DNA of 64,000 nucleotides, taken from NCBI RefSeq assembly GCF_000784835.1, contig NZ_JSFH01000006.1, positions 1 through 64,000 on the forward strand. The letters run 5' to 3'. Below are positions 16,873 to 18,628 of the stretch, piece by piece. The notes under the pieces are model-generated. The model was not told the DNA's origin. It saw only the letters and a list, made by a program, of their open reading frames with translations, and ran no database searches. The stretch comes from Thermotoga sp. Mc24 (lineage in GTDB: Bacteria; Thermotogota; Thermotogae; Thermotogales; Thermotogaceae). The position numbers were made by a program, and so were the translations under genes. Numbering within the stretch: the stretch's first letter is position 1; the number at the start of each line of letters is the position of its first letter.

Positions 16873-18628
16873 GTTTCCATACCTCTAAGGAAGTATTGAA
16901 ACGCTCGTAGCCTACCATCGCTCTTGCTTCGTTCGGTGGTTTCCATACCTCTAAGGAAGTATTGAAACATTGTATATACTGACAAAGGAGTTTTCTATGT
17001 TAAGTTTCCATACCTCTAAGGAAGTATTGAAACTGTGGTTTTCCCCACTCCTCGTCGGCCCGTGAGATAGTTTCCATACCTCTAAGGAAGTATTGAAACA
17101 AGGACAGGCAACTTCCTTCTGTCGACGTTCACCAGTTTCCATACCTCTAAGGAAGTATTGAAACTCAAACAGAACAATGAAAGCAAGGTATAGATGTGAA
17201 GTTTCCATACCTCTAAGGAAGTATTGAAACCAAGGTATATTTTCAGGATACACTGAACTTTTTCGGGTTTCCATACCTCTAAGGAAGTATTGAAACACGT
17301 TGCGTTGAAGCAGGCGCACTATATGGTTATTTTGTTTCCATACCTCTAAGGAAGTATTGAAACTCGGAAGTCGATTTATGTCCTTTGGGCTCTGTCAGAG
17401 TTTCCATACCTCTAAGGAAGTATTGAAACAAAAGGAGAAGATCAAGAAGAAAAAGAAGGTGAGAGGAGTTTCCATACCTCTAAGGAAGTATTGAAACCTT
17501 ATTCACGAAGATAATCATGAACTCGCTTTATGGGTTTCCATACCTCTAAGGAAGTATTGAAACTGATATTCCTCTCGTATATTGTCTGGGTCGGGGTTTC
17601 GTTTCCATACCTCTAAGGAAGTATTGAAACTGCAATATGCTTTTCTAAAGCTAACAGACGAGGGCTGTTTCCATACCTCTAAGGAAGTATTGAAACCTGA
17701 GCGCTCTCGCTTGAAAACAGTGGTTGCGGGAGGTTTCCATACCTCTAAGGAAGTATTGAAACAAAATTGTCTGCGTAATAGTCTGTGCTCTTGCGGGCGC
17801 GTTTCCATACCTCTAAGGAAGTATTGAAACTCCTGTACTGGACATACCACCATTCGAAATCTTCGTCGTTTCCATACCTCTAAGGAAGTATTGAAACGGG
17901 AGAAGGGTATCCCATCGACGACGATATCAAGATCGCGTTTCCATACCTCTAAGGAAGTATTGAAACATGCACCACCCCTACATCCAAACTGCAGGTGCTC
18001 GATCATCTTGTTTCCATACCTCTAAGGAAGTATTGAAACGGTTTTGACAGTTTTCATGCCGAAACAGGAAATTAGTTTCCATACCTCTAAGGAAGTATTG
18101 AAACATCTAACGGAGCGTATGAAACTGCTAAAAATCCTGCGTTTCCATACCTCTAAGGAAGTATTGAAACGGCTCGTATCCGACCATTTCTCTCGCTTCG
18201 TTCGGTGTTTCCATACCTCTAAGGAAGTATTGAAACCAACAGTTTTGCTGTGGCTGTTTTCTCCTTCACAAGTTTCCATACCTCTAAGGAAGTATTGAAA
18301 CGAGAAGAAGTTCAGAGAGATAGTGCTTGAGGAATGTTTCCATACCTCTAAGGAAGTATTGAAACTGTCTAAGAGCTTGTGCTGTTCCTCTGTCAATTTT
18401 GGTTTCCATACCTCTAAGGAAGTATTGAAACGAAGCGGTCACGAACGCAATCGAAGGACTCGTGCGTGTTTCCATACCTCTAAGGAAGTATTGAAACAAA
18501 CGGATGAAGAAGCGATAAGAGTAGCGTATGCTGTTTCCATACCTCTAAGGAAGTATTGAAACTCTTTCGCAGACAACGAGTGACAATCTACAGTCGTTGT
18601 TTCCATACCTCTAAGGAAGTATTGAAAC
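16873..18628 (-). CRISPR. CRISPR array, 27 repeats and 26 spacers
   Basis: Twenty-seven identical 30-bp repeats. On the minus strand each begins GTTTCAATACTTCC and ends GAGGTATGGAAAC; I found no degenerate copy. The 26 spacers are 34-39 bp except one of 43 bp (17967-18009). Repeat starts on the plus strand run from 16873 (leader-distal) to 18599 (leader-proximal). A TTGCTT-17-TATAAT promoter just right of the last repeat sets leftward transcription. The repeat is the one known from Thermotoga genomes. No cas gene is in the window, so the array must be served by Cas proteins encoded elsewhere. Spacers at 16903-16938 and 18171-18206 are near-duplicates. Confidence 0.98.

What the first reader, a model, noticed from the sequence alone, without database searches (positions are those of the whole stretch)
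16903..18206. Two CRISPR spacers are diverged copies of one coding protospacer
Spacers 16903-16938 and 18171-18206 match at 30 of 35 aligned bases (offset by one). Read on the minus strand in one frame they encode PNEARAMVGYE and PNEAREMVGYE. Three of five differences are synonymous third-position changes and the other two fall in a single codon. So the host sampled the same gene from two related invaders at different times (array end versus seventh from the leader). The peptide resembles the C-terminal NEAR-x-x-x-G segment of HK97-type phage portal proteins.
Basis: partly seen in the sequence, partly recalled or inferred. Interest (0 to 1): 0.72.

Follow-up and report, generated by a model that had tools for sequence, protein, structure and literature searches.

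The report
Thermotoga CRISPR memories of phage portal
Two CRISPR spacers in this Thermotoga genome are different versions of one spot in a phage portal (DNA-entry) gene, and a matching phage gene found in metagenome data supports that the cell recorded the same site from two related phages at two times.

Summary
The observation and the interpretation both hold. Spacers 16903-16938 and 18171-18206 match at 30 of 35 bases, offset by one, and encode PNEARAMVGYE and PNEAREMVGYE. They are the only similar pair among the 26 spacers of the array. The predicted kind of phage exists. Three IMG/VR contigs (L130-L132) carry an HK97-type head-packaging module targeted by about 28 of the genome's 198 spacers at 11 or fewer mismatches; reversed controls give none below 12. 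Their portal gene (TIGR01537, E=3.5e-64) contains LTPNEARAMLGYEP where both spacers map, in the predicted frame. The pair is one case of a general pattern: eight diverged spacer pairs occur genome-wide, and mismatches to the phage fall on codon positions 1/2/3 as 11/2/56. Natural PAMs are mainly TCA, fitting the YYD motif measured in vitro for T. maritima I-B (PMC13199841). Same-register re-acquisition (+-1 nt) is more frequent than PAM choice alone predicts (4 pairs against 0.22 expected). This is ordinary CRISPR immunity with a precedent in Legionella; its use is that it ties two phage families to the genus and gives natural protospacers and PAMs.

The parts
16873..18628 (-). CRISPR array: 27 identical 30-nt repeats (crRNA sense GTTTCAATACTTCCTTAGAGGTATGGAAAC), 26 spacers
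   Evidence: identical repeat listed for Thermotoga sp. RQ7 (PMC5637354)
18629..18830 (-). Leader: AT-rich flank conserved at the arrays of the genome
   Evidence: 88% identity over 232 bp at five other arrays; two further arrays are cut by contig ends just past the last repeat
16903..16938 (-). Spacer 1 (leader-distal, oldest): encodes PNEARAMVGYE; maps to the phage portal gene L132:9201-9166 with 6 mismatches, PAM TCA
18171..18206 (-). Spacer 20 (7th from leader): encodes PNEAREMVGYE; maps 1 nt downstream of spacer 1 in the same portal codons with 8 mismatches
17697..17732 (-). Spacer 13: 36/36 match to the terminase large subunit gene of the same phage (L130, L132), PAM CCA
17967..18009 (-). 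Spacer 17 (43 nt): MuF-type minor head protein gene of the same phage, 2-4 mismatches; diverged partner is spacer 3 of another array (L036)
18366..18401 (-). Spacer 23: MuF gene (KLTEEQHKLLD) of the same phage, 7 mismatches, PAM TCA; same register as spacer 4 of array L036 and overlaps spacer 13 of array L047 on the other strand
18432..18467 (-). Spacer 24: weak match to the phage tape-measure region (9 mismatches)
   Evidence: not followed further

Best explanation
The two spacers are independent acquisitions from the same site, about 25 codons before the end of the portal gene, in two related tailed phages. The host is a Thermotoga species with a type I-B plus III-B CRISPR-Cas locus (shown). 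An early infection gave spacer 1. Later a diverged relative, with synonymous changes and one A-to-E change, infected and gave spacer 20. The acquisition complex chose the same spot because it selects next to a TCA-type PAM, and spacer 20 looks like a one-base slip from that PAM (inferred). The minus-strand crRNA carries the coding-strand sequence, so it can guide Cascade/Cas3 to the phage DNA but cannot pair with the portal mRNA; for these two spacers only the DNA-targeting I-B arm should act (inferred). Spacer 1 matches the spacer-20 phage in the seed and differs at crRNA positions 14, 19, 20, 26 and 29. It may have cut poorly and primed new acquisition (possible, not shown).
For: The site lies inside a real HK97 portal ORF, in the predicted frame and with the predicted peptide but for one residue. 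The host link is strong: 11 of 198 spacers match L130-L132 at 2 or fewer mismatches and 28 at 11 or fewer, against none below 12 in reversed controls. Spacers of three other species of the genus (G091, G093, G094) also match these phages, many perfectly. Mismatches of diverged spacers fall 11/2/56 on codon positions. The PAM for spacer 1 is TCA, the commonest of 29 natural PAMs (14/29; TCA background 2%; YYD 20/29 against 20% background), agreeing with the in vitro YYD motif (PMC13199841). Cas8b/Cas7/Cas5/Cas3/Cas4/Cas1 and Cmr genes are present.
Against: No contig carries either spacer sequence exactly, so the two source phages are not in hand. The nearest phage has MLGYE, with two mismatches in the seed of each crRNA, so these spacers probably do not act well on L130-L132 themselves. 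The order of acquisition rests on leader polarity, and array rearrangement cannot be excluded.
Confidence: 0.94

Rival explanations
1. One spacer-repeat unit was duplicated inside the array and the copy drifted by mutation.
For: Unit duplication does happen here: spacers 20 and 21 of array L036 are identical neighbours.
Against: The two spacers are offset by one base relative to the repeats; all 27 repeats are identical; neighbouring spacers are not duplicated; the differences respect codons. Drift in a non-coding spacer would not keep the peptide.
Confidence: 0.02
2. Both spacers came from one phage population or one infection (standing variation, or two portal-like genes in one phage) rather than from two separated encounters.
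For: The contigs differ from each other by 3-11% in most aligned stretches, so co-circulating variants exist; other spacers in this array also hit the same phage family.
Against: Eighteen other spacers lie between the two, so they were not taken up together unless the array was rearranged; I saw a single portal gene in the contigs.
Confidence: 0.06
3. The similarity is a coincidence, or the target is a plasmid or host gene.
For: No exact match to either spacer was found in the collections searched.
Against: The pair score is 25 against 10 for the best unrelated pair. The site lies in a phage portal gene flanked by terminase, MuF, protease and capsid genes. All pattern hits for the motif in 2.9 million viral contigs fall in portal or portal-like ORFs. 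No copy in 103 Thermotogota genomes outside the array.
Confidence: 0.01

Closest known systems
Legionella pneumophila Toronto-2005 spacers against mobile element LME-1 (PMC5071653)
   Same: Pairs of spacers of different age target overlapping sites of one mobile element; the older one is mismatched and the newer one fits; read as escape followed by primed re-acquisition.
   Different: There the element is in hand and the new spacers match perfectly. Here both spacers differ from the sampled phage, the changes are mostly synonymous, and the pattern spans several arrays, two phage families and several species.
Thermotoga maritima type I-B1 Cascade (PMC13199841)
   Same: Same kind of Cas gene set (Cas8b, Cas7, Cas5, Cas3), same genus; most natural PAMs found here (TCA, CCA, TCG, TTA, TTG) fit the YYD motif measured in vitro.
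   Different: That work used a PAM library and a synthetic target; its authors state that the PAMs were not known beforehand. Here the PAMs come from natural protospacers, with a strong bias to TCA within YYD.
HK97-type portal protein (TIGR01537 / PF04860)
   Same: The targeted gene scores far above the curated cut-off and carries the C-terminal PNEARxxxG segment.
   Different: Nothing unusual; the best-placed named phage relative is the portal of Geobacillus phage GBK2 at 38% identity.
Slipped spacers of type I systems (E. coli I-E, discussed in PMC6568314)
   Same: A one-base shift of register from the consensus PAM, as between spacers 1 and 20.
   Different: Here the slip is inferred from the relative's flank, because the source phage of spacer 20 is not known.

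Membership tests
Type I-B CRISPR-Cas array | Direct repeats with unique spacers and a conserved leader | tested here: met
Type I-B CRISPR-Cas array | Cas8b, Cas7, Cas5, Cas3, Cas4 and Cas1 in the genome | tested here: met
   a III-B (Cmr) module lies next to it
Type I-B CRISPR-Cas array | 5' PAM next to the protospacers | tested here: met
   TCA in 14 of 29 close matches; YYD 20 of 29 against 20% background
Type I-B CRISPR-Cas array | Spacers are expressed and give interference | not testable with these tools
   Needs RNA or plasmid-challenge data
HK97-type portal gene as the target | Targeted ORF scores above TIGR01537 and PF04860 cut-offs | tested here: met
   217 bits against cut-off 112; 257.8 bits against 39.1
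HK97-type portal gene as the target | Gene order terminase, portal, minor head protein, protease, capsid | tested here: met
   L132 ORFs with family matches
HK97-type portal gene as the target | Spacer reading frame equals the portal frame | tested here: met
   PNEARAMVGYE / PNEAREMVGYE against PNEARAMLGYE, codon-position counts 1/0/5 and 1/1/6
Phage infecting Thermotoga | Infects the host | tested here: inconclusive
   Only spacer matches in four genomes of the genus; no isolate and no portal-bearing prophage in the genus

The most novel reading that the evidence does not exclude
Thermotoga I-B adaptation has intrinsic hot sites: particular protospacers are taken again and again in the same register (+-1 nt) from diverged phages, in different arrays and in different species, beyond what the PAM explains. 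Four such pairs were seen on one 12-kb phage module (0.22 expected). A fifth pair (L047 spacers 5 and 10) lies on an unrelated second phage family.
Probability: 0.4. Interest if true: 0.55.

Novelty: new member of a known kind. Interest (0 to 1): 0.47.

Why it matters
No isolated virus of the genus Thermotoga turned up in the papers and phage records searched here. This analysis starts from two spacers and arrives at two unrelated families of tailed phages tied to the genus by many spacer matches from several species, and at the natural PAM of its type I-B system. It also shows a practical method: peptides shared by diverged spacers can be turned into degenerate DNA patterns that find the phage when ordinary spacer BLAST finds nothing. 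The same-register repeats make the question of acquisition hot sites testable in a thermophilic I-B system.

Tried and rejected
Spacer BLAST against GenBank phages: spacer 1 gave nothing, and a joined query of the first 64 or so spacers gave only chance-level hits. The exact peptide pattern PNEAR[A/E]MVGYE gave no viral contig and only the two spacers in 103 Thermotogota genomes. The looser pattern first hit L046 and a large family of other portals, which showed that the motif is a portal motif but was not the phage. No portal prophage in the genus. The FEWIPWLGDK pattern from another spacer pair found nothing. I tested whether older spacers are more diverged from the sampled phage: the trend is weak (Spearman 0.20, p=0.35; Mann-Whitney p=0.08) and is not claimed.

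Full report
What is in the sequence. The array at 16873-18628 has 27 identical repeats and 26 spacers. Spacers 1 (16903-16938) and 20 (18171-18206) align at 30 of 35 bases with a one-base offset. They are the only similar pair in the array (score 25, next 10). On the minus strand they read PNEARAMVGYE and PNEAREMVGYE, with differences on codon positions 0/1/4.

Orientation. The flank right of the last repeat is shared by the arrays of the genome (about 88% over 232 bp at five other arrays; two more are cut by contig ends just beyond the last repeat), and degenerate repeats occur at the left end of some arrays. The leader is therefore on the right and the crRNA is the minus strand. The position of the PAM (5' side in that orientation) agrees. 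Spacer 1 is the oldest and spacer 20 the seventh youngest of this array.

Host system. The genome (1.82 Mb, 12 contigs) has eight arrays, from which I collected 198 spacers. One locus encodes Cas8b, Cas7, Cas5, Cas3, Cas4 and Cas1 (type I-B) followed by Cmr1, Cas10b, Cmr3 and Cmr4 (type III-B). The repeat is identical to that of Thermotoga sp. RQ7 (PMC5637354).

The pair is not alone. Among the 198 spacers, eight pairs are clearly homologous but diverged, plus one identical neighbouring duplicate. In each pair the differences pile up on one codon position. One triple encodes KLTEEQHKLLDRLI. Another pair encodes HPNCRC, a segment I recognised from memory as MuF-like and which later confirmed (PF04233).

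Finding the phage. Ordinary searches failed. The degenerate pattern for TEEQHKLLDRLI found three IMG/VR contigs, L130-L132. These carry TerL, portal, MuF protein, prohead protease, major capsid protein, connectors, tail genes and a 959-aa ORF that I take for the tape-measure protein by its size and place. Eleven spacers match at 2 or fewer mismatches and 28 at 11 or fewer; reversed or complemented spacers never fall below 12. Spacers of three other species of the genus match too, many perfectly. Host assignment is therefore strong, though it is by spacers only.

The portal site. The phage reads ATCCTCA|CTCCTAACGAAGCGAGAGCGATGCTGGGCTACGAAC|CC, that is I-L-T-P-N-E-A-R-A-M-L-G-Y-E-P, inside the 391-aa portal gene. 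Spacer 1 fits with 6 mismatches and a TCA PAM; spacer 20 fits one base further on with 8 mismatches. All pattern hits for the NEARxMxGY motif in the viral collection lie in ORFs that are portals (L046 and L132 by family search; L130 and L131 as near-identical relatives of L132) or look like portals (L149-L151, judged from sequence only). A further spacer, L035 number 17, is a 38/38 match to the next stretch of the same gene and has its own diverged partner, L036 number 9.

Coding constraint. Over the spacers with 3 or more mismatches that map inside an L132 gene, mismatches fall 11/2/56 on codon positions 1/2/3 (chi-square p about 1.6e-16; related sites are counted together, so the p-value is rough). 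The differences were produced by evolution of the phage genes, not by drift in the array. The one-base offset and the perfect repeats speak against a duplicated unit as the origin of this pair.

A second phage family. The pair L047 numbers 5 and 10 led to three more contigs, L138-L140, with a different terminase, MuF-like and capsid set (judged from the ORFs of L139). Both spacers map there in the same register with PAM TCA at 4 and 2 mismatches. In G091 two arrays hold the same phage-1 protospacer with lengths 37 and 36. G094 and this genome share the register of another portal site.

PAM and hot sites. In 29 close matches the PAM is TCA 14 times (background 2%) and YYD 20 times (background 20%). 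Reconstituted T. maritima Cascade prefers YYD, with seed positions 1-5 and 7 (PMC13199841). With PAM weights taken from the data, 33 sites on L132 should give 0.22 same-register pairs (within 1 nt); four were seen (1 of 4000 simulations). One of the four is the pair that started the work. Without it, three remain against 0.22 expected, which is still unlikely (a Poisson estimate of mine, about 0.002). The test was chosen after seeing the data, so I treat hot sites as plausible but unproven.

Mechanism. Shown: two diverged source sequences, one site, phage portal gene, host link, PAM. Inferred: two encounters separated in time, and a one-base slip for spacer 20 (slipped spacers are described in PMC6568314). 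Possible: priming by spacer 1, whose seed is intact against the spacer-20 version and whose mismatches are at positions 14, 19, 20, 26 and 29. Both crRNAs have the coding-strand sequence and so cannot bind portal mRNA; type III-B should not use them.

Comparison. Legionella Toronto-2005 has the same kind of old/new spacer pair against LME-1 (PMC5071653), so the phenomenon is known. What is new, as far as the searched papers show, is the concrete link of two phage families to Thermotoga, the natural PAMs, and the number of repeat captures.

Noticed in passing
L138, L139, L140: Second, unrelated tailed-phage family targeted by this genome (spacers L047#5, #10, L033#16, #22, #25, L034#18) and by G091 and G093 spacers.
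   Followed up: partly
L143 spacer 19 and L145 spacer 11 (genome G091): Two arrays of another Thermotoga species hold the same protospacer in the same register but with lengths 37 and 36, suggesting two separate captures.
   Followed up: partly
L048 spacer 20 and L148 spacer 4: Two species of the genus hold diverged spacers in exactly the same register of the portal gene (L132:9504-9540, PAM TCG).
   Followed up: partly
L036 spacers 20 and 21: Identical neighbouring spacers: a true duplication inside an array.
   Followed up: no
L034 and L035 arrays, leader-proximal repeats: Array-specific repeat variants near the leader (GGAATTATTG and GGAACTATTG instead of GGAAGTATTG), while some distal repeats have the common form.
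   Followed up: no
L033 spacer 45 (43 nt): Spacer begins (array + orientation) with ATTGAAAC, a copy of the last 8 bases of the repeat, which suggests imprecise repeat duplication.
   Followed up: no
window 17967-18009: Spacer 17 is 43 nt, the longest of the array, yet matches the phage MuF gene along its whole length (2 mismatches in L130), so it is a real long capture.
   Followed up: yes
L034 spacer 15 and L036 spacer 22: Diverged same-register pair (possible peptide FEWIPWLGDK) whose phage was not found.
   Followed up: partly
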